From a virus, in the IMG/VR virus record IMGVR_UViG_3300031673_000014, positions 1 to 64,000 of that record: a stretch of 64,000 nt of DNA; one strand, written 5' to 3'. The position numbers and the translations under genes are program-made. Below the pieces are notes generated by a model. The model was not told the origin of the DNA. It saw only the letters and a program-made list of their open reading frames with translations, and did no database searches. Every line of letters starts with the position of its first letter. The stretch's first letter is position 1. Positions 8,135 through 59,032 of the stretch are shown here, piece after piece.

Positions 8135-8329
8135 TTACTCCTTTATAGGCAGTCCTAAAGTGTTTAATCTAAAAAATAATAAATCCTGGACATACCCCGG
8201 GGGAACTCTTCTTCCAGTTTCCCATGAGTATAAAGTGTTTTCTGGAATGCCAGTGTTTTTGATTACATACTCCCTAGACCATCCCCTGTTGCCGATATAC
8301 TCTGTCAATTTTTCACTAAAGTCTGTCAA
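8135..8329 (-). CDS. XRE-type HTH regulator, probable repressor of the switch
   Basis: 64 aa from a TTG start with GAGGG upstream. The helix-turn-helix reads W-S-R-E-Y-V-I-K-N-T-G-I-P-E-N-T-L-Y-S-W-E-T-G-R-R, a standard XRE pattern, and there is almost nothing besides the HTH. It is the first gene of the minus-strand operon. Its promoter shares a palindromic operator with the opposing plus-strand promoter (8372-8397), so it is the natural candidate to bind there and control both directions. Whether it is the main lysogeny repressor or a Cro-like partner cannot be told from sequence. Confidence 0.75.
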   Translation of the reverse strand: MTDFSEKLTEYIGNRGWSREYVIKNTGIPENTLYSWETGRRVPPGYVQDLLFFRLNTLGLPIKE

Positions 8330-8350: not shown

Positions 8351-8380
8351 ATTGTAAGTTTATTGTATTGTCATTGTCAA
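8351..8380 (-). promoter_or_regulatory. Minus-strand promoter of the HTH operon
   Basis: On the minus strand the -35 TTGACA (8380-8375) and -10 TACAAT (8356-8351) are separated by 18 nt. The -35 lies within the left arm of the palindrome, so a protein bound there would block it. Confidence 0.65.
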
Positions 8381-8397
8381 GATAAATATTGACAATG
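8372..8397. promoter_or_regulatory. Palindromic operator between divergent promoters
   Basis: Perfect inverted repeat CATTGTCAA - 8 nt - TTGACAATG. Each arm contains the -35 hexamer of one of the two divergent promoters. Additional ATTGT half-sites at 8351 and 8363-8368 may be weaker binding positions. The arrangement is typical of a phage repressor switch. Confidence 0.75.
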
Positions 8398-8418
8398 TGA
8401 ATACCGAGGCTATATACT
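8389..8418 (+). promoter_or_regulatory. Plus-strand promoter opposite the HTH operon
   Basis: -35 TTGACA at 8389-8394 and -10 TATACT at 8413-8418, 18-nt spacer. The -35 lies in the right arm of the operator. It would drive the small genes from 8441 and possibly the antirepressor at 9126. Confidence 0.65.
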
Positions 8419-9033: not shown

Positions 9034-9061
9034 TTGCAATTATCTAAAATGATGTTATACT
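9034..9061 (+). promoter_or_regulatory. Promoter of the BRO-N antirepressor
   Basis: -35 TTGCAA at 9034-9039 and -10 TATACT at 9056-9061, 16-nt spacer. The 24-nt segment 9029-9052 covering the -35 recurs exactly at 10642-10665, where no matching -10 is seen. Confidence 0.5.
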
Positions 9062-9081
9062 TTATGTATCCCTGAAAGGTG

Positions 9082-9118
9082 CTCGTAACACCGATTAGGG
9101 GAAATCATTTCTTACGAG
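9082..9118 (+). promoter_or_regulatory. Leader hairpin enclosing the BRO-N ribosome site
   Basis: The arms CTCGTAA (9082-9088) and TTACGAG (9112-9118) are complementary. A nested GATT/AATC pair lies inside. The GAGGGA ribosome site of the gene at 9126 overlaps the right arm, so folding would hide it. This parallels the leaders of the other antirepressors in the window, though this stem is shorter. Confidence 0.45.
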
Positions 9119-9125
9119 GGACAAT

Positions 9126-9752
9126 GTGAAATCAGATCAATTACAAACATTTAACAATTCAGAGATCGGAGAAATTAGAGGATTCATTAAAGATGGAGAA
9201 CCTTGGTTTTTAGCAGGTCAAGTTTGCCGTACTTTAGGTATAAAAGATGCAAGTACAGCAATTAAAGACATTGAAAATAGATACAGGGCTTCAGGATTAG
9301 AGGATACCATTAGTAGTGGTATCCTTTTAGAGACTAATGGCGGTAAACAAAAAGTTTTAATTATTCCCGAACCTATTCTTTATGAATTAATATTTAAGAG
9401 CCGAAAAGAAAAGGCGTTATTATTTAGAAGATGGGTAACAAGAGAGGTTTTGCCATCTCTTAGAAAGTACGGACAATACAGAATGACAGGGAAACTTATC
9501 CATAGATCATTAACCGATACAATAAAAGAAGACATAATCCCGAACATTGAAAGTGAAATGGGAAAAAGATTTGCATATTCTAATTTTCAGAAGATGATAA
9601 ATAAATCTTTAGACCTGCCGAGCAAAATAGATAAAGACTCAATTGATCCAGAAACACTTGAAAAAATAGCGCACAGAGAGAATCTTGTAAAAGCTATGAT
9701 TGAAGAGGGAAAGGATTATCACAAAATTAAAGAAATTATAGCAAGCTTTTAA
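9126..9752 (+). CDS. BRO-N domain antirepressor
   Basis: 208 aa from GTG. Residues about 10-110 form a BRO-N (phage antirepressor N) domain: I-R-G-F-I-K-D-G-E-P-W-F-L-A-G-Q-V-C, then L-G-I-K-D-A-S-T-A-I, I-I-P-E-P-I-L-Y-E-L-I-F-K-S-R-K, A-L-L-F-R-R-W-V-T-R-E-V-L-P-S-L-R-K-Y-G. BRO-N proteins bind DNA or repressors and can trigger prophage induction. The C-terminal half is not a KilAC or ORF6C domain that I recognise. It sits on the plus-strand side of the divergent switch, as expected for a lytic-side regulator, and has its own promoter and a hairpin over the ribosome site. Confidence 0.85.
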   Translation: MKSDQLQTFNNSEIGEIRGFIKDGEPWFLAGQVCRTLGIKDASTAIKDIENRYRASGLEDTISSGILLETNGGKQKVLIIPEPILYELIFKSRKEKALLFRRWVTREVLPSLRKYGQYRMTGKLIHRSLTDTIKEDIIPNIESEMGKRFAYSNFQKMINKSLDLPSKIDKDSIDPETLEKIAHRENLVKAMIEEGKDYHKIKEIIASF

Positions 9753-16503: not shown

Positions 16504-16532
16504 TTGATTTTATCTATTTTAAATGGTATGTT
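16504..16532 (+). promoter_or_regulatory. Promoter of the KilAC antirepressor leader
   Basis: -35 TTGATT (16504-16509), 17-nt spacer, -10 TATGTT (16527-16532). The predicted start falls in GAAGATCGTTGAT (16537-16549), a 13-mer also found at the matching place of the minus-strand antirepressor leader at 43656-43644. Confidence 0.45.
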
Positions 16533-16536
16533 TAAT

Positions 16537-16699
16537 GAAGATCGTTGATATATATTTTATTTCAGGAGTTCACCCCTCTATTGAAAGAAAATATCAAACA
16601 CTTTAGACCTATTGGTCAGAGGTTGGGAATTTCCGCTGTTTGAGGATTTTTCCAGGGTGAGCCTCTGACTGATAGGTTTTTTTGTTTTTAGGGGTAAAT
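16537..16699 (+). ncRNA. C4-like attenuator leader RNA of antirepressor
   Basis: An 18-nt arm at 16607-16624 pairs along its whole length with 16660-16677, with 15 Watson-Crick and 3 G-U pairs and no mismatch. A U-rich run (16678-16689) follows directly, as in an intrinsic terminator, and the ribosome site AGGGGT (16690-16695) follows that. An upstream ACCCCT (16571-16576) is complementary to this site. The layout (leader RNA, long stem, terminator, antirepressor) is like C4 RNA of P1-type phages. Homology to C4 itself is not shown. Confidence 0.6.
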
Positions 16700-17332
16700 A
16701 TGGAAGACAATAAAAGTTTAAGTTTATTTTCAGATGGGTTTTTAAAGGGAATTAAAGAGGGTATAGAAAAAATGTCTGTCCGTGAGATTTCAATTTCTCT
16801 TGATACTCCAGAGCGTACAATCCACAATTCTATTGATAGGGTTTTCCCGGGATTAAAGAAAAATGGAATAAAGACAGAACTAGACGAATATCAGGTATCT
16901 TTAATATCTGAAGATCTTAAAAAAGCACATAATACCGACCTTGCCAGTACCCGCAAGGTTGCTACAACAGACATAGAGCTACTTCTACAGTCTGAAAAAC
17001 TTCTTTCCGCTTTGAGTCTCAGACTTATGGATGCAAAGAAAGAAATTGAGATTCTTACTCCTAAAGCTGAATTTTACGACCGGGTAACTGAATCAAATGA
17101 TACTTTCGGTATGGGTGCAGTTGCAAAAATCCTGAATATCAAAGGGTTCGGTCGGAATAATCTTATTAAATATTTGAAAGATGAAAAAATTATCATGAAA
17201 TCTAATGAACCATATCAAAAATATCTACATTATTTTAAAGCTGTAGAGGTTGAAACAAGTGTTGGATTAAAATTAAAACCAGTAGCTTTTCAGAAAGGTG
17301 TAGATTTTATTTTAAAAAGAATAGGGAAATAA
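16700..17332 (+). CDS. KilAC-domain antirepressor (copy 1)
   Basis: The ATG at 16700 is preceded by TAGGGG; the frame is open six codons further, but those lie in the terminator. 210 aa. The N-terminal part has an HTH (V-R-E-I-S-I-S-L-D-T-P-E-R-T-I-H-N-S-I-D-R-V-F-P). The C-terminal half is a KilAC-type domain: L-T-P-K-A-E-F-Y-D-R-V, M-G-A-V-A-K-I-L-N-I-K-G-F-G-R-N-N-L, F-Q-K-G-V-D-F-I-L-K. The same two-part design occurs in the minus-strand protein at 42896. KilAC proteins act as antirepressors that free lytic genes. Expression is likely attenuated by the leader RNA. Confidence 0.8.
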   Translation: MEDNKSLSLFSDGFLKGIKEGIEKMSVREISISLDTPERTIHNSIDRVFPGLKKNGIKTELDEYQVSLISEDLKKAHNTDLASTRKVATTDIELLLQSEKLLSALSLRLMDAKKEIEILTPKAEFYDRVTESNDTFGMGAVAKILNIKGFGRNNLIKYLKDEKIIMKSNEPYQKYLHYFKAVEVETSVGLKLKPVAFQKGVDFILKRIGK

Positions 17333-17396: not shown

Positions 17397-18170
17397 ATGA
17401 AGGAAATACGCTTAGTTGGAAGAGCTAAAAATAACATTTTTCTATCTATCTGTGAGAAAAAAGGATTATTCACAAATAGGGTGATAGCTGATTACTTTGG
17501 TATACCGGAAGGTAAAATAGGAAAGATTATTAATCTGGCTAAAGGCTCTGTTTTAAACTCAAAAGGGGATTACTTAGAGTCATCGAAGATTATAGCAAAA
17601 AAGCTAAATCTACTTGAAGAAGATTTGTTTCCATTTTCATTATACAGCATTGAAGAGACCAAATTTAACCTAGAGATGAACATTGAAGACAGGGTTAAAA
17701 TTTTAGACGATTCTTATATATTTGACAGGATAGAAAGCAATCAATTAAAAAAATCTTTAAACGATATACTTGATACAATCCCACCGAGGGAAAAGCTTGC
17801 AATCGAACACAAATACGGTCTTAACGGAGAAGAACCTAAAACCTTAGAAGCCGTCGGAATGATCCTTAATGTTTCCAAAGAAAGATGCCGACAAATAATA
17901 TGTAAGGGCGAAAGGAGACTAAGACATCCTAAAAGAGTATCCAAACTAATACAATTTATGGATTTCGAGCCTACCGACGGGGATGGAATAGGCTCTAGTG
18001 TTATTAAGATAAAAAGATTAAAAGAAGAAATAAAAGATCTTTATAGAAAGGTTTCTTCTGGGGAAATATCCCGAAAGGAATATAGAGACTTTAATAGTCG
18101 TTTAAATTGTTTACAGATTATGCTCAATCGAGAGATATTAGAACTTAAAACAAAAAAGGGGGAATTATGA
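17397..18170 (+). CDS. Sigma-factor-like protein with region 4 HTH
   Basis: 257 aa, ATG after AAGGGGG. Residues about 123-182 match sigma-70 region 4: L-D-T-I-P-P-R-E-K-L-A-I-E-H-K-Y-G-L, then T-L-E-A-V-G-M-I-L-N-V-S-K-E-R-C-R-Q-I, with G-E-R-R-L-R-H-P. This part would contact a -35 element. The N-terminal 75 aa look like a phage XRE-type domain (V-I-A-D-Y-F-G-I-P-E-G-K-I-G-K-I-I-N-L) instead of sigma regions 2-3, so it is a composite regulator, not a full sigma factor. Placed before the structural operon, it is the best candidate late-gene activator. Its own promoter carries a probable operator. Confidence 0.7.
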   Translation: MKEIRLVGRAKNNIFLSICEKKGLFTNRVIADYFGIPEGKIGKIINLAKGSVLNSKGDYLESSKIIAKKLNLLEEDLFPFSLYSIEETKFNLEMNIEDRVKILDDSYIFDRIESNQLKKSLNDILDTIPPREKLAIEHKYGLNGEEPKTLEAVGMILNVSKERCRQIICKGERRLRHPKRVSKLIQFMDFEPTDGDGIGSSVIKIKRLKEEIKDLYRKVSSGEISRKEYRDFNSRLNCLQIMLNREILELKTKKGEL

Positions 18171-18753: not shown

Positions 18754-18920
18754 ATGGCACAAGCCGCAACTGTTTTAATTATTCAAATATTGATCGAATT
18801 CTTCCAACAAAAGAAGAAGTTGACTTTCTCTGTAAAGATATCAAAATTATAGATAAAGTTGCTGAGAACGCCATCCTAAGCGGTGATTTAGAGACAAAAA
18901 TAAATCCTGTTGACAAATAA
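18750..18920 (+). CDS. Hypothetical small protein (56 aa)
   Basis: ATG overlapping the kinase stop, preceded by GGGGGAA. Product has a K-E-E-V-D-F-L-C-K-D-I-K-I-I-D-K-V-A helix. Its end (P-V-D-K) is encoded by the -35 region of the next promoter. No family recognised. Confidence 0.55.
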   Translation: MNGTSRNCFNYSNIDRILPTKEEVDFLCKDIKIIDKVAENAILSGDLETKINPVDK

Positions 18921-18938
18921 ATATTAAAGACTTAAAAT
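18910..18938 (+). promoter_or_regulatory. Candidate promoter of the structural operon
   Basis: -35 TTGACA (18910-18915), 17-nt spacer, -10 TAAAAT (18933-18938). Transcription would begin near 18945 and meet the terminator at 18972 within about 30 nt, so read-through control is needed if this promoter drives the head genes. Confidence 0.45.
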
Positions 18939-18971
18939 CATAACATAAATCTAACGGGAGTTCGATAACGA

Positions 18972-19004
18972 GACCTGTTCCTTAACTGGGACAGGTCTTT
19001 TTTT
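18972..19004 (+). terminator. Intrinsic terminator or attenuator before the head genes
   Basis: GACCTGTTCC - TTAACT - GGGACAGGTC (one G-U pair) followed by seven T. The T-run touches the ATG of the protease gene at 19005. It ends the regulatory operon and may be an anti-termination point for the structural operon. Confidence 0.85.
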
Positions 19005-20498
19005 ATGCTTATGATAGAAAACGATTATATTTACACAGAAGCAAGAATCTCGAAAAGCATTGTCGGCGAACAATGGGAAACTGATAAGGCCGGAAATCCT
19101 ATTATAATAATCGAGGCTTCTAATGAGGATCTTGACTATGAGGGCGAACGGGTCCTGAGATCTGCTCTATTAAACAGTAGAGATTACTTTCTTCAAAACG
19201 GCGTTATTTCTTATGATCACAAACATCTACCTTCCTCAGACAATCACTCATGGGATCCTGAATGGAATTCCGAGAAATATGTAATAGGGAAACCTATAGA
19301 TGCATGGGAAGGAAAAGACGATAACGGAAAAAAAGTAGTTCTTGTAAAAGCTGTCCTTTCCCGGTCAAATGCTATTGCCAAAGAGATAATTGGAAAACTT
19401 CGCGACGGACTAGAAACTGTTAAAGCTTCCGTTGGCGGTCGTAAAGTGAAAAAAGCGTTTAAAATGGATACGAACACATATAAAGAAGTACCTACCATTA
19501 TGGCGGTAGACTGGGATGAAGTCGCTTTGACTTACAAGCCAGTTAATCAGTCTCTTGGAGCTACAACTTTATGTCCGAAGGAATTTGTGAAATCTCTTAC
19601 TGCCGGTTCAAGTGCGAATCCTGCAGAGATGTCCGGGGGAAATGCCTTACAAGTGCAATCCTTAGAGGGGTCTCCTGTTAGATCCTTAATGACTAAGTTA
19701 AGAAATAAAGAGATAAGCAAAAGTAGTGATGCAATTAATCATCTTGTGAATCTTGGTTACTCGACAGAGAAAGCCGGGAATGTCCTCAAGGTGATATTGA
19801 AAAAATATTTAGGAGATATTGTTATGGCAAAAAACGACAACGTTAATGACATCATCGATTCCTCCACCGATGAGCTTTTAAAAGCCCTGGAAGACCTTGA
19901 GGGCGGTGGTGATGTTCTTATCAAAGGTATTGATAAGATGAAAGATGATGGCGTGTACAAAAACCGTGGTGGTCACATGTACATGAAAAAAGCCGATGGA
20001 AAATATGAGAAGATGGATGAAGATTCACCTGATTATGACGGCGAAGATGATGATGATGATGACAATGATGAAGACGACATGGGTAAATCCCTTGGCGAAG
20101 AAGTCATTGATGCAACTGAAGTCATCGAAAGTATGGAAAAATCAATCAAAAAACTTGTTGGAATGGTTGAATCCCTTTCGACAACTGTTGAAAAACAGAG
20201 TTCTTTGATGAAATCTATTGGGGCTGTTACTGCCGAAGATTCTGTTTTGATTAAATCAATTGCAGGAACTCCGCAACCGAGACAGACAACCAATGGGTTA
20301 AAAGTTGAACCAAGATTTCAAAAATCTCAGGTAGACGCGCTGATGAAAGTAACAACTGAATCGTTGATCAAATCAATGATTGATGCAGATATTGATGGAA
20401 ACACAATGGCTGCGGCAAACCTTGCTTTCAGAAAAGGCGGAATTCAGGCTGTTGTGGCCAACGTTCCCCGAGTTGCTGAACTGCTGGTGAAGGAGTAA
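19005..20498 (+). CDS. Prohead protease fused to scaffold-like domain
   Basis: 497 aa. Residues 1-185 look like an HK97-type prohead protease: I-S-Y-D-H-K-H with His72, and V-K-A-S-V-G-G with Ser142, followed by D-E-V-A-L-T. Residues 198-221 (L-T-A-G-S-S-A-N-P-A-E-M, then L-Q-V-Q-S-L-E) repeat almost exactly near the N-terminus of the capsid protein. The remainder (about 280-400) is very acidic, with a D-rich run and helical L-V-G-M-V-E-S-L-S, as in scaffolds. There is no clear ribosome site; ATGs at 19005 and 19011 are both possible. It would direct assembly and mature the prohead, cutting itself out. Confidence 0.75.
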   Translation: MLMIENDYIYTEARISKSIVGEQWETDKAGNPIIIIEASNEDLDYEGERVLRSALLNSRDYFLQNGVISYDHKHLPSSDNHSWDPEWNSEKYVIGKPIDAWEGKDDNGKKVVLVKAVLSRSNAIAKEIIGKLRDGLETVKASVGGRKVKKAFKMDTNTYKEVPTIMAVDWDEVALTYKPVNQSLGATTLCPKEFVKSLTAGSSANPAEMSGGNALQVQSLEGSPVRSLMTKLRNKEISKSSDAINHLVNLGYSTEKAGNVLKVILKKYLGDIVMAKNDNVNDIIDSSTDELLKALEDLEGGGDVLIKGIDKMKDDGVYKNRGGHMYMKKADGKYEKMDEDSPDYDGEDDDDDDNDEDDMGKSLGEEVIDATEVIESMEKSIKKLVGMVESLSTTVEKQSSLMKSIGAVTAEDSVLIKSIAGTPQPRQTTNGLKVEPRFQKSQVDALMKVTTESLIKSMIDADIDGNTMAAANLAFRKGGIQAVVANVPRVAELLVKE

Positions 20499-42865: not shown

Positions 42866-42901
42866 AAATAAGATAGGTCGAAATCCTGTCCGATCTTATT
42901 T
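42866..42901 (-). terminator. Hairpin at the end of the antirepressor gene
   Basis: AAATAAGAT (42866-42874) and ATCTTATTT (42893-42901) pair, with an inner GG/CC. The stop codon of the antirepressor (42898-42896) lies in the right arm. The U-run is weak, so partial termination before the helicase gene is likely. Confidence 0.5.
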
Positions 42902-43519
42902 ATTCTCTTTAATATATTTCTTCCTGAAATTATCTATGTTCTGCATTGTCATAACTGCTTGAGGGTAGTTTCTACTCTCGGAGACGTTTGTTCTAAGAGT
43001 CAATAATCCAAGATTTAAAGATTTTTGAGAGGGTATATTTTTCCCGGTCAACAACCCATTATCTCTCATAATGTCAAATATTTCTGTTTGGCTTAACCCT
43101 AAATGTTTGCCAGCATCACGAATAGAATAATGTTTTGATTCATCTCTCAGGGCAGCATCAGCAAGTGCAGCTTTTGGTTTTAGAATTGCATTTTCTTCCT
43201 CTAGTTTCTTATACCTCTGAATAGCGAGCTCATAACCTTTTACGATCATCAAAGCTTCTTCTGCCTGTGTTGTTGGCAACTTCCTACGATCATCGGAAGT
43301 GATTAAAGAACTATTTTCCTTAATTCTCATTGAAACTGCCGTTACTTCATATTCGTTCAAATAAGTAATCTTACCATTCTTAACTTTATCAGGAAAAATC
43401 TCATTAACCCTTTTTATTACAAGGGCATAACTTACTCCTAATGAATCTGCAACTTCTTTTATGGTCATTGTTTTTTCTGGAAAATCTTCTTGTGGAAATA
43501 ATGCAAGATCTCTGTTCAT
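42896..43519 (-). CDS. KilAC-domain antirepressor (copy 2)
   Basis: The ATG at 43519 has AAGGAG 7 nt upstream; the frame is open 11 codons further but into the leader stem. 207 aa. N-terminal HTH (T-I-K-E-V-A-D-S-L-G-V-S-Y-A-L-V-I-K-R-V) and C-terminal KilAC domain (L-K-P-K-A-A-L-A-D-A-A-L-R-D, Y-S-I-R-D-A-G-K-H-L-G-L-S-Q-T-E-I-F, then A-V-M-T-M-Q-N-I-D). Same domain plan as the protein at 16700, but with little sequence identity. The ribosome site lies in a perfect 18-bp stem. Confidence 0.85.
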   Translation of the reverse strand: MNRDLALFPQEDFPEKTMTIKEVADSLGVSYALVIKRVNEIFPDKVKNGKITYLNEYEVTAVSMRIKENSSLITSDDRRKLPTTQAEEALMIVKGYELAIQRYKKLEEENAILKPKAALADAALRDESKHYSIRDAGKHLGLSQTEIFDIMRDNGLLTGKNIPSQKSLNLGLLTLRTNVSESRNYPQAVMTMQNIDNFRKKYIKENK

Positions 43520-43656
43520 AAAAAACTCCTTAAGTCTTCCTGTAGCGACCACTAAAAAGCTAGTTCGGAAAACTTTATAGGGCAGGAAGACTTAAGGAGT
43601 CTTTCAAATCCCAAACTAATATAACTCTCCGCTAAAAGAGCAGATCAACGATCTTC
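43520..43656 (-). ncRNA. C4-like attenuator leader RNA of antirepressor copy 2
   Basis: Minus strand: the arm at 43600-43583 (ACTCCTTAAGTCTTCCTG) is perfectly complementary to the arm at 43542-43525, with a 40-nt interior. The right arm includes the AAGGAG ribosome site and is followed directly by six T and the ATG. The transcript would begin near 43654 with GAAGATCGTTGAT, as for the leader at 16537. When folded, both transcription and translation should be blocked. Confidence 0.65.
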
Positions 43657-43660
43657 CATA

Positions 43661-43689
43661 ATAATACAGACATTAAAGAACATTGTCAA
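43661..43689 (-). promoter_or_regulatory. Minus-strand promoter of the antirepressor leader
   Basis: Minus strand: -35 TTGACA (43689-43684), 17-nt spacer, -10 TATTAT (43666-43661). Near consensus. It faces away from the plus-strand promoter at 43706. Confidence 0.65.
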
Positions 43690-53920: not shown

Positions 53921-54067
53921 ATGTGGTTGACTGTAAAAGAATATGCTGAAAAGCATGGTATAACCGATCAGGCAGTAAGAAAGCGAATGAAAGCAGGGCA
54001 TATCCCTGAAATTAGAATCAGAAAAAACGACGGGGGAAAGATTGAGATAAAAGAGAGGGAATCATGA
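53921..54067 (+). CDS. Excisionase/MerR-like HTH micro-protein (48 aa)
   Basis: ATG after AAGGAG. W-L-T-V-K-E-Y-A-E-K-H-G-I-T-D-Q-A-V-R-K followed by R-M-K-A-G-H-I-P is a winged-helix of the excisionase/HTH_17 type. Its stop overlaps the next ATG (ATGA). In this position it likely regulates, or works with, the replication initiator rather than an integrase, since none is present. Confidence 0.65.
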   Translation: MWLTVKEYAEKHGITDQAVRKRMKAGHIPEIRIRKNDGGKIEIKERES

Positions 54068-54771
54068 CTATAAAAGAAATTTCAGATTTTACCGGGAAAG
54101 AGATAAGAACTATAAGAAGATGGATTGCCAAAGCAGGTGACAAAGTGTCACAGGTGCCCCATGACAAAATGTCACAGGGTATTCCTTTCGATTATTCAAT
54201 AGATGATGTTGAATGCATATTGCAGTCAGGATCAATGTCTAAAGATGCCGTAACTATTGTTATGAGTAATGCAAGAAACAATAATAAAACATCGGACACT
54301 TTGGCAGACAATACGTCCGGCGGTGATATTGTTGTGTATAATGCACATAATCAAACAGAATTGTTTTTAAGATTTTTTGATAAAATACAAAAAGATAATT
54401 TAAATGCAATTGATAGAATGCAAAAAGACAATCAAATATTCATGCAAAATATTATTGCTGAGATCAGGTTGCAAAATGCAACCCAATCAAAACCTAATAA
54501 TCAGTTACAAATAGAAGATATACCAGAAAAGCCATTAAGAGAGGCATATAAAGAGAAAATGAGAGAATATGCCTTCAAGTCTGGTAAAGATTTTGGAACA
54601 GCGTATCGATATGTTTATGATGAAATCGGTTCTATATATGGGATTAGGGTAATGGCAAGAGCTAAAAATAGAAAATGCACCGGAGTTGATATACTTGAAT
54701 CTGACGGATATCTGAATAAAGGAATCTCTGTAATCATAAAGCTGATCAAAACATTAGAAGAGGGAGTTTAA
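54064..54771 (+). CDS. HTH protein containing iteron-like DNA repeats, possible initiator
   Basis: 235 aa. N-terminal HTH (T-I-K-E-I-S-D-F-T-G-K-E-I-R-T-I-R-R-W-I). Residues 25-38 (D-K-V-S-Q, D-K-M-S-Q) are encoded by two copies of a palindromic 17-mer (54138-54178). The middle is a Q/N-rich helix, and the C-terminal R-E-A-Y-K-E-K-M-R-E-Y-A-F and N-R-K-C-T-G-V-D may contact DNA. The gene is followed by a replication protein. An origin-binding role, with the origin in its own gene as in lambda O, is plausible but not shown. Confidence 0.5.
   Translation: MTIKEISDFTGKEIRTIRRWIAKAGDKVSQVPHDKMSQGIPFDYSIDDVECILQSGSMSKDAVTIVMSNARNNNKTSDTLADNTSGGDIVVYNAHNQTELFLRFFDKIQKDNLNAIDRMQKDNQIFMQNIIAEIRLQNATQSKPNNQLQIEDIPEKPLREAYKEKMREYAFKSGKDFGTAYRYVYDEIGSIYGIRVMARAKNRKCTGVDILESDGYLNKGISVIIKLIKTLEEGV
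54138..54178 (+). repeat. Iteron-like direct repeats, possible origin
   Basis: TGACAAAGTGTCACAGG (54138-54154) and TGACAAAATGTCACAGG (54162-54178), 24 nt from start to start. Each contains the palindrome TGACA-nnn-TGTCA. Two such copies in the first part of a replication gene look like protein-binding iterons. Confidence 0.55.
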
Positions 54772-58152: not shown

Positions 58153-58221
58153 ATCATGGATTATAGTTGATTTATCAGTTTAGAACCTGACTATACGAAC
58201 AATAATCTAAATTAGATTATG

Positions 58222-58333
58222 AGACTGGTAATAGTTTTCAGAGGAATAATACAATATGGCCGTTGTTCGTGGTTTGTATCATTCGTTCTAACTCGGGAAA
58301 CTATTGCTGGTCTTTTTTTATTTGGAGGATTTT
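58222..58333 (+). ncRNA. Attenuator-like leader RNA of the AntA gene
   Basis: The 18-nt arm 58222-58239 pairs fully with 58296-58313, with several G-U pairs and no mismatch, then seven T follow and GGAGG (58324-58328) precedes the ATG. The loop is 56 nt. This repeats the plan of the leaders at 16607 and 43600 with a different primary sequence, so the structure, not the sequence, is conserved. Confidence 0.6.
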
Positions 58334-59032
58334 ATGAACGATTTAATTAAGATTGAAAACAAGAACGGAATTGAGACCGTCAACGCAAGAGAACTTCACG
58401 AGTTTTTAGAGAGTAAACAGGATTTTTCTACATGGGTAAAAGGTAGAATTAAAAAGTATGATTTTTCTGCAAACATCGATTTTATTTGCTTCCATAAAAA
58501 AATGGAAGCCAACAATGCAACCATAATAGACTATCATATCTCACTTGATATGGCTAAAGAACTCTCCATGGTTGAAAATAACGAAAAGGGAAGAGAAGCC
58601 AGAAGATACTTTATTGAGTGTGAGAAAAAGGCTAAAGGCTTTGTTACTCAAAATATAAACAGTTCTGATGTAATTATACAACTGCTACAGCAAAACCAGA
58701 TAATCATGAAATCACTTATTGAAAGAGTTGATAAGGTAGAGAGTAATTCTTTTATTGTTTCTTCCGGGAAAAAGCAAAAATATAAACTTCCCCCGGCGAA
58801 ACAAATGGAATTCCAGAGTATTGGAGAAGATTATTACACAATAGCAGCTTACCAGAAGATCAGGAAAATTTCTCTTTACGATACGTCTTCACATGGGAAA
58901 ATTCTTACTGGAATATGCAATCGGGAAGGAATACAGATAAGTTCTGTTAAAAGCACTACTTTCGGGATAGTAAATTCTTATCCTGAATCAGTTCTTAAGA
59001 AATATTTTGATTCTATGGTGGTCGGGAAGTAA
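58334..59032 (+). CDS. AntA-type antirepressor
   Basis: ATG at 58334 with GGAGG 5 nt upstream; a longer frame goes into the terminator. 232 aa. Residues 12-110 are AntA/AntB: N-A-R-E-L-H-E-F-L-E-S-K-Q-D-F-S-T-W, then D-Y-H-I-S-L-D-M-A-K-E-L-S-M-V-E-N-N and R-Y-F-I-E-C-E-K-K-A. The C-terminal half has a coiled coil and a small domain (I-G-E-D-Y-Y-T-I-A-A-Y-Q-K-I-R-K) that may bind DNA or partners. Third antirepressor with a stem-leader. Confidence 0.85.
   Translation: MNDLIKIENKNGIETVNARELHEFLESKQDFSTWVKGRIKKYDFSANIDFICFHKKMEANNATIIDYHISLDMAKELSMVENNEKGREARRYFIECEKKAKGFVTQNINSSDVIIQLLQQNQIIMKSLIERVDKVESNSFIVSSGKKQKYKLPPAKQMEFQSIGEDYYTIAAYQKIRKISLYDTSSHGKILTGICNREGIQISSVKSTTFGIVNSYPESVLKKYFDSMVVGK

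What the first reader, a model, noticed from the sequence alone, without database searches (positions are those of the whole stretch)
16537..16699. Antirepressor leader with an 18-bp stem, U-run and an upstream anti-ribosome-site: C4-like RNA switch
Arms 16607-16624 and 16660-16677 pair over 18 positions with three G-U pairs and no mismatch, then a U-rich run, then the ribosome site. ACCCCT at 16571 is complementary to the AGGGGT site. Phages P1/P7 use C4 RNA in this position to silence an antirepressor. The same plan occurs at two more antirepressors in this window, so this genome appears to control three antirepressors by similar RNAs. Direct observation: pairing and order. Inference: function.
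Basis: partly seen in the sequence, partly recalled or inferred. Interest (0 to 1): 0.85.

Follow-up and report, generated by a model that had tools for sequence, protein, structure and literature searches.

The report
Knotted RNA terminator before phage antirepressors
This phage places a folded RNA, a small hairpin whose loop pairs with a bulge in a long terminator hairpin, just before three of its prophage-waking (antirepressor) genes; the same knot stands before antirepressors of unrelated phages and matches no catalogued RNA family, so it looks like a not yet described off-switch for waking prophages.

Summary
The 18-bp stem, U-run and downstream ribosome site are real and not chance, and the same plan precedes two further antirepressors (58.2 kb, + strand; 43.5 kb, - strand). 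In 81 kb, exactly three sites meet a stem/U-run/start criterion and all three are antirepressor leaders; random sequence gives none.

The C4 reading is not supported. No Rfam family matches, the ACCCCT/AGGGGT pairing is at chance level (357 of 1000 shuffles), and leaders in general do not complement their ribosome sites.

What the leaders share is different: a small 5' hairpin whose loop is complementary to a 6-7-nt bulge on the 3' side of the terminator hairpin, a loop-bulge pseudoknot. It recurs before antirepressors of other phages, including an isolated Oceanospirillum phage. Covariation supports it: between two distant leaders, 11 of 24 stem pairs and 3 of 6 pseudoknot pairs changed on both sides, and none broke.

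Most likely it is a promoter-proximal attenuator that ends transcription as a short RNA just before the antirepressor. The structure is well supported; the mechanism is inferred.

The parts
16504..16532 (+). putative ant2 promoter TTGATT-17-TATGTT
   Evidence: read from sequence; only 8 of 12 consensus matches, inferred. The 13-mer that follows it by 4 nt also follows the much better ant4 promoter by 4 nt
16537..16549 (+). GAAGATCGTTGAT, identical in the ant2 and ant4 leaders
   Evidence: only two exact copies in the window
16565..16579 (+). ant2 5' hairpin H1 (GGAG-UUCACCC-CUCU); loop pairs with the bulge at 16655-16660
   Evidence: 0 of 1000 upstream shuffles reach the observed loop-bulge score
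16605..16679 (+). ant2 long terminator-like hairpin with 3' bulge GGGUGA (16655-16660)
16677..16683 (+). U7 run at the 3' foot of the ant2 hairpin
16690..16695 (+). ant2 Shine-Dalgarno AGGGGU
   Evidence: ATG at 16700
16700..17332 (+). ant2, antirepressor with KilAC domain
   Evidence: PF03374 E=7.8e-18, phrog_63
58175..58190 (+). ant3 5' hairpin H1 (UCAG-UUUAGAAC-CUGA)
   Evidence: compensatory changes against G001
58202..58220 (+). ant3 second small hairpin (AUAAUC...GAUUAU), also in G001
58221..58314 (+). ant3 long hairpin, 3' bulge GUUCUAA (58285-58291), U7 58313-58319
58334..59032 (+). ant3, AntA antirepressor
   Evidence: PF08346 E=8e-27
43661..43689 (-). ant4 promoter TTGACA-17-TATTAT
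   Evidence: read from sequence
43644..43656 (-). GAAGATCGTTGAT in the ant4 leader
43625..43640 (-). ant4 5' hairpin H1 (CUCU-UUUAGCGG-AGAG); loop UAGCGG pairs with bulge UCGCUA (43548-43543)
   Evidence: (56 of 1000 shuffles)
43520..43605 (-). ant4 long hairpin (23-bp basal stem) ending in U6; the SD AAGGAG lies inside the 3' arm
   Evidence: (z=-6.5)
42896..43519 (-). ant4, antirepressor with KilAC domain, distant paralogue of ant2 (26%)
   Evidence: PF03374 E=1.9e-12

Best explanation
Each leader is the transcribed start of its own small transcription unit: promoter, small hairpin H1, a long hairpin tied to H1 by a loop-bulge pseudoknot, U-run, antirepressor. SHOWN by sequence and covariation: the two hairpins, the loop-bulge pairing, the U-run and the position. 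INFERRED: the long hairpin is an intrinsic terminator (attenuator), so most transcripts end just before, or in ant4 inside, the ribosome site as a stable RNA of roughly 110-150 nt and little antirepressor is made while the prophage is quiet. H1 pairs with the bulge as it emerges, just before the 3' arm is made, and so helps the terminator close. Read-through, and hence antirepressor and induction, rises when that pairing is blocked or when RNA polymerase is made termination-resistant. Loop and bulge sequences differ between leaders, so each unit is separately addressable.
For: Same architecture in ant2, ant3, ant4, relative phage G001 (L212:5555-5720), L038 (AntA), L395 (pRha+KilAC), L273 (small ORF then AntA), isolated Oceanospirillum phage GJ44 (L410; 8-bp loop-bulge match) and, looser, L374. 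L038 vs L395: 24 stem pairs with 11 compensatory and 0 broken; 6 loop-bulge pairs with 3 compensatory and 0 broken; sliding partners gives 0-2 compensatory. ant3 vs G001: 7 loop-bulge pairs with 2 compensatory and 0 broken. Combined shuffle test over 7 leaders p=1.6e-8. Among 15 bulged hairpins with a basal stem of >=12 bp before a start in 2.9 Mb, the 7 with a matching upstream loop are exactly these leaders and none of the other 8 has a comparable one; 0 such hairpins in random sequence. U5-U8 at the stem foot of every leader. ant3 and G001 leaders align up to the U-run, but the SD and gene differ, so the conserved unit ends at the terminator. ant2 with its leader is absent from the same place in G001, as expected of a self-contained cassette.
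Against: No transcript or termination has been measured, and the host is unknown. Individual shuffle values for ant4 (56/1000) and L395 (159/2000) are weak. The pseudoknot as drawn does not compete with the terminator, so how it would switch is a guess. In ant4 the SD lies in the stem, so translation could be the controlled step there. The ant2 promoter is weak by consensus. The G001 gene is a MerR-like regulator not recognised as an antirepressor. Most AntA leaders examined lack this element.
Confidence: 0.6

Rival explanations
1. C4-like antisense RNA: the leader RNA represses the antirepressor by pairing with its ribosome-binding site.
For: Same position as C4. ACCCCT faces AGGGGT in ant2. 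In L273 a 9-nt apical segment is complementary to the SD (3 of 300 shuffles).
Against: No Rfam C4 or sRNA-Xcc1 hit, although the same search found RF02221 in four other antirepressor loci. Leader-RBS complementarity at chance for ant2, ant3, G001, L038, L395 and L374; apical loop-RBS duplexes not better than shuffles except L273. The leader is conserved between ant3 and G001 while the SD is not.
Confidence: 0.1
2. IsrK-like: the terminated leader RNA acts in trans on read-through mRNA, enforcing silence or switching on translation, as in Gifsy-1 isrK-orf45-anrP.
For: Same gene plan: promoter, short RNA with terminator, read-through to an antirepressor; L273 even has a small ORF in between, like orf45 (PMC4825925).
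Against: IsrK works through a long (~30 nt) complementarity to orf45 and alternative helices; no such second pairing was found here, and no Rfam match.
Confidence: 0.15
3. Plain insulation: an ordinary strong terminator or RBS-hiding hairpin shields a dangerous gene from read-through, and the antirepressor is expressed from a promoter inside the hairpin (T4 gene e / IS10 style).
For: ant4 hides its SD in the stem; its loop contains TATAAAG.
Against: Does not explain the upstream hairpin whose loop complements the bulge in unrelated phages with compensatory change. No fitting -35 spacing was seen in ant4, and no -10-like sequence was noted in the ant2 loop (inspection by eye).
Confidence: 0.1
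4. Type III toxin-antitoxin-like arrangement: the pseudoknotted leader RNA binds and inhibits the antirepressor protein, with the terminator setting the RNA:mRNA ratio.
For: Type III operons place the antitoxin RNA and a Rho-independent terminator before the toxin gene (PMC5086642).
Against: The ant3-type leader in G001 precedes an unrelated protein, and the architecture serves AntA, KilAC and MerR-like proteins; no tandem repeats seen in the leaders.
Confidence: 0.04

Closest known systems
C4 antisense RNA of phages P1/P7 (Rfam RF01695) and sRNA-Xcc1 (RF02221)
   Same: structured RNA encoded immediately upstream of an antirepressor gene; loop sequences vary between copies
   Different: C4: three stem-loops, RNase P processing, a'/b' loops pair with ant mRNA around the RBS (PMC5320573). 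Here: two hairpins tied by a loop-bulge pseudoknot, the second one a U-tailed terminator; no RBS complementarity beyond chance; no Rfam match
IsrK sRNA of Salmonella prophage Gifsy-1 (PMC4825925)
   Same: promoter - short RNA - Rho-independent terminator - (small ORF) - antirepressor, with read-through giving the mRNA
   Different: IsrK relies on a ~30-nt complementarity between the sRNA and orf45 and alternative helices; no such pairing found here
Type III toxin-antitoxin operons (ToxIN, CptIN)
   Same: promoter, pseudoknotted RNA, Rho-independent terminator, then the dangerous gene
   Different: no RNA repeats; the protein is a phage antirepressor, not an endoribonuclease; leaders are swapped between unrelated proteins
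sar RNA of phage P22
   Same: RNA control of an antirepressor
   Different: sar is an antisense transcript pairing with ant mRNA (PMC12197685); here the structured RNA is on the sense strand and no strong antisense promoter lies in the 5' part of ant2

Membership tests
C4 antisense RNA (RF01695) | match to the Rfam covariance model | tested here: not met
   no hit at E<=1 in the whole window; ant2 region at E<=10 gives only chance families
C4 antisense RNA (RF01695) | loops complementary to ant mRNA around the ribosome-binding site | tested here: not met
   6-bp ACCCCU/AGGGGU reached by 357 of 1000 shuffles; six of the seven leaders with a shuffle test are at chance
C4 antisense RNA (RF01695) | located directly upstream of an antirepressor gene | tested here: met
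   ant2, ant3, ant4
C4 antisense RNA (RF01695) | ~77-nt RNA cut out by RNase P | not testable with these tools
   needs 5'-end mapping
sRNA-Xcc1 (RF02221) | match to the Rfam model | tested here: not met
   the same search method finds it in L009, L015, L029 and L035
IsrK (isrK family of Rfam) | match to the Rfam model | tested here: not met
   no match to any Rfam family in the window at E<=1
IsrK-type control | terminated leader RNA acts in trans on the read-through mRNA | not testable with these tools
   needs trans-complementation
intrinsic terminator / attenuator | strong hairpin followed immediately by a U-run, between promoter and gene | tested here: met
   U5-U8 in every leader
intrinsic terminator / attenuator | actual termination and regulated read-through | not testable with these tools
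   no transcript data
loop-bulge-tied antirepressor leader (family proposed here) | 5' hairpin loop complementary to the 3' bulge of the terminator hairpin, kept by compensatory change | tested here: met

The most novel reading that the evidence does not exclude
The loop and bulge are an immunity code acting in trans: the terminated leader RNA of a resident prophage accumulates and, through the same 6-8-nt loop-bulge recognition, pairs with the nascent leader of an incoming or newly copied phage and forces termination before the antirepressor. The antirepressor is then expressed only where no matching RNA is present, and the three different codes in this one phage would be three separately addressable immunity specificities, a transcriptional counterpart of C4.
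Probability: 0.18. Interest if true: 0.88.

Novelty: new variant of a known kind. Interest (0 to 1): 0.74.

Why it matters
RNA control of antirepressors is known from a few models (C4, sar, IsrK), mostly by antisense pairing. Here is a different and recurrent RNA architecture, with no Rfam 15 match for the window's copies, placed before several unrelated antirepressor families in unrelated phages and three times in one genome. It suggests that attenuation with a loop-bulge pseudoknot is an independent, mobile solution for keeping prophage-waking genes silent, and it gives a precise base-pair code to test. One instance lies in an isolated phage (Oceanospirillum phage vB_OliS_GJ44), so it can be tested at the bench.

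Tried and rejected
C4/sRNA-Xcc1 membership by Rfam: rejected for these leaders. Apical loop as antisense to the RBS: not significant except L273. Pattern scan with the ant3 hairpin arms: only G001 was real. MCP scan in bacterial genomes: no host found. AntA survey in the phylum of L273's genome: 2 of 396 genomes, too rare. Sequence search with the L395/L038 leaders in phages and plasmids: nothing. First gapless pseudoknot descriptor missed ant3 and L038 because of internal loops and mismatches; replaced by a fold-based one. L370, L384 and L195 hairpins looked at and rejected: no bulge match. Four other named-phage antirepressor leaders (L411, L414, L415, L416) have no such element.

Full report
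WHAT WAS CLAIMED AND WHAT IS THERE. The window is 64 kb of an 81,145-bp virus record, a temperate phage with a contractile tail (sheath and capsid hits). The gene downstream of the finding (ATG 16700, 210 aa) carries the KilAC antirepressor domain (PF03374, E=7.8e-18). The stem, the three G-U pairs, the U-run and the ribosome site are exactly as described. The region folds better than all 200 shuffles (z=-3.7). A scan for a stem of at least 13 bp with a loop of 18-75 nt, a U-run, an SD and a start codon finds three sites in the whole 81-kb record and none in 25 random windows. The three sites are the leaders of three antirepressors: ant2 (the finding), ant3 (AntA, 58334) and ant4 (KilAC, minus strand, 43519). 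Ant4 was identified here by PHROGs and Pfam. A fourth antirepressor, ant1 (Bro-N, 9126), has a different leader.

THE C4 READING. A full Rfam 15 scan of the window gave nothing at E<=1, and the ant2 leader gave only chance hits at E<=10. The same tool finds RF02221 (sRNA-Xcc1) in four other antirepressor loci, so the negative is informative. By eye, the Bartonella-type AntA leaders among my loci do carry loops complementary to the sequence at the ribosome site. C4 is defined by three stem-loops, RNase P processing and a'/b' loops that pair with ant mRNA around the ribosome site (PMC5320573). In ant2 the ACCCCT/AGGGGT match is reached by 357 of 1000 shuffled leaders, and five further leaders (ant3, G001, L038, L395, L374) are at chance; only L273 stands out. 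The ant4 5' arm complements its SD because the SD lies inside the stem. The leader therefore resembles C4 in position and presumed purpose, but is not a C4 by the features tested.

WHAT THE LEADERS SHARE. The long hairpins of ant2, ant3 and ant4 all have a bulge of 6-7 nt on the 3' side, between an inner and an outer stem. In each leader a small hairpin beginning 36-46 nt upstream of the stem carries a loop complementary to that bulge: ant2 loop UCACCC with bulge GGGUGA; ant3 UUAGAAC with GUUCUAA; ant4 UAGCGG with UCGCUA.

INDEPENDENT INSTANCES. (a) A relative phage G001 (IMG/VR 3300027845_000349; capsid protein 85% identical) has a leader clearly homologous to ant3's, but in front of a different gene, a MerR-like regulator 46% identical to window 54064-54771. 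(b) L038, an AntA gene of another phage contig. (c) L395, a pRha+KilAC antirepressor of a third contig. (d) L273, a MAG contig labelled Bacteroidetes: hairpin, small ORF, then AntA (z=-9.7). (e) Oceanospirillum phage vB_OliS_GJ44, an isolated, annotated phage, with 8 perfectly complementary bases between loop UUCAGACC and bulge GGUCUGAA (0 of 2000 shuffles). (f) A looser case, L374, where the bulge is enlarged to a small hairpin. L273, L395 and GJ44 were found after the descriptor had been fixed on the earlier ones.

COVARIATION. L038 and L395 precede unrelated antirepressors, yet their hairpins align without gaps over 66 nt. Of 24 stem pairs, 12 are the same, 1 changed on one side, 11 changed on both sides and none is broken. 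Of the 6 loop-bulge pairs, 3 are the same, 3 changed on both sides and none is broken. Sliding one arm by 1-3 positions leaves 0-2 double changes. In ant3 versus G001 the loop-bulge helix has 7 pairs, 2 changed on both sides, none broken; the long hairpin has 2 double changes and 4 broken pairs, three of them near the tip. Combined over seven leaders (G001 left out as homologous to ant3), the shuffle test gives p=1.6e-8. In 2.9 Mb of held sequence, 15 bulged hairpins with a basal stem of at least 12 bp stand before a start codon. Seven have a matching upstream loop, and these are exactly ant2, ant3, ant4, G001, L038, L273 and L395; none of the other eight has a comparable loop. Five of the seven precede an antirepressor directly and one through a small ORF, while 238 of 3221 ORFs in the sample are antirepressor-like. 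By simple binomial arithmetic of mine, five or more of seven has a chance of about 4e-5; the sample was drawn around antirepressors and the starts counted differ slightly from the ORFs, so this is rough.

HOW IT PROBABLY WORKS. Shown: the RNA structure, the U-run of 5-8 at the foot of every long hairpin, and the position just before the start codon. The ant4 leader has a good sigma-70 promoter (TTGACA-17-TATTAT, 43689-43661). Ant2 has a weaker one (16504-16532). Both are followed at the same distance by the same 13-mer. The ant2 unit is a cassette: in G001 the gene before it and the promoter after it are adjacent without it. The conserved unit ends at the U-run: between ant3 and G001 the sequence beyond it, including the SD and the gene, differs. 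Inferred: the hairpin is an intrinsic terminator, the default product is a short RNA, and the antirepressor is made only by read-through. The loop-bulge pairing forms just before the 3' arm is transcribed and would most simply help the terminator close. A factor or RNA that blocks it, or an antitermination state of RNA polymerase, would turn the gene on. Gifsy-1 IsrK is a tested precedent for the gene plan (promoter, short terminated RNA, small ORF, antirepressor; PMC4825925), although its pairing scheme differs.

LIMITS. There is no transcript, termination or host evidence. Two of the individual shuffle tests are weak (ant4 56/1000, L395 159/2000). The pseudoknot is compatible with the terminator rather than competing with it, so the switching step is the weakest part of the account. 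Most AntA leaders in my sample do not have this element, and four other antirepressor leaders from named phages lack it, so it is one of several solutions. Collections were sampled, not exhausted.

Noticed in passing
window 9034-9128: The fourth antirepressor (Bro-N, 9126) has a small leader: promoter TTGCAA-16-TATACT and a hairpin CCCU..GGUG-CUCGUAA-CACC..AGGG whose 7-nt loop is complementary to UUACGAG over the ribosome site (58 of 1000 shuffles reach 7 bp). This one resembles a one-loop C4 or a ribosome-site pseudoknot.
   Followed up: partly
window 18910-19005: Late operon: promoter TTGACA-17-TAAAAT, ~30 nt, then a perfect terminator (18970-18999) immediately before the first late gene; the same arrangement is conserved in G001 (L210:4995-5095). 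This suggests Q-like antitermination of late genes.
   Followed up: partly
window 17397-18170: Phage-encoded protein with sigma-70 region 4 (PF04545) just after ant2; a possible phage-specific transcription factor.
   Followed up: no
L008-L039 and L267-L345 (AntA loci of Bartonella type): Many AntA genes per Bartonella-type prophage, with C4-like leaders in which one loop matches the sequence at the SD and a second segment matches farther upstream; the loop sequence changes together with the target. The Rfam hit is to RF02221 (sRNA-Xcc1), suggesting that sRNA-Xcc1 is an antirepressor-leader RNA.
   Followed up: partly
L090 9154-9846 (record 72154-72846): A Rha-family regulator (PF09669); with ant1-4 this makes five antirepressor-type genes in one phage.
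   Followed up: no
window 8365-8404: 19-nt imperfect palindrome between divergent genes (HTH repressor-like 8135-8329 and 8441), probably the operator of the lysogeny switch.
   Followed up: no
L011 upstream of 3004: AntA leader that looks C4-like by eye: one segment GCCAATA matches TATTGGC next to the SD and a second, AGTCCCGT, matches GCGGGATT with wobble pairs.
   Followed up: no
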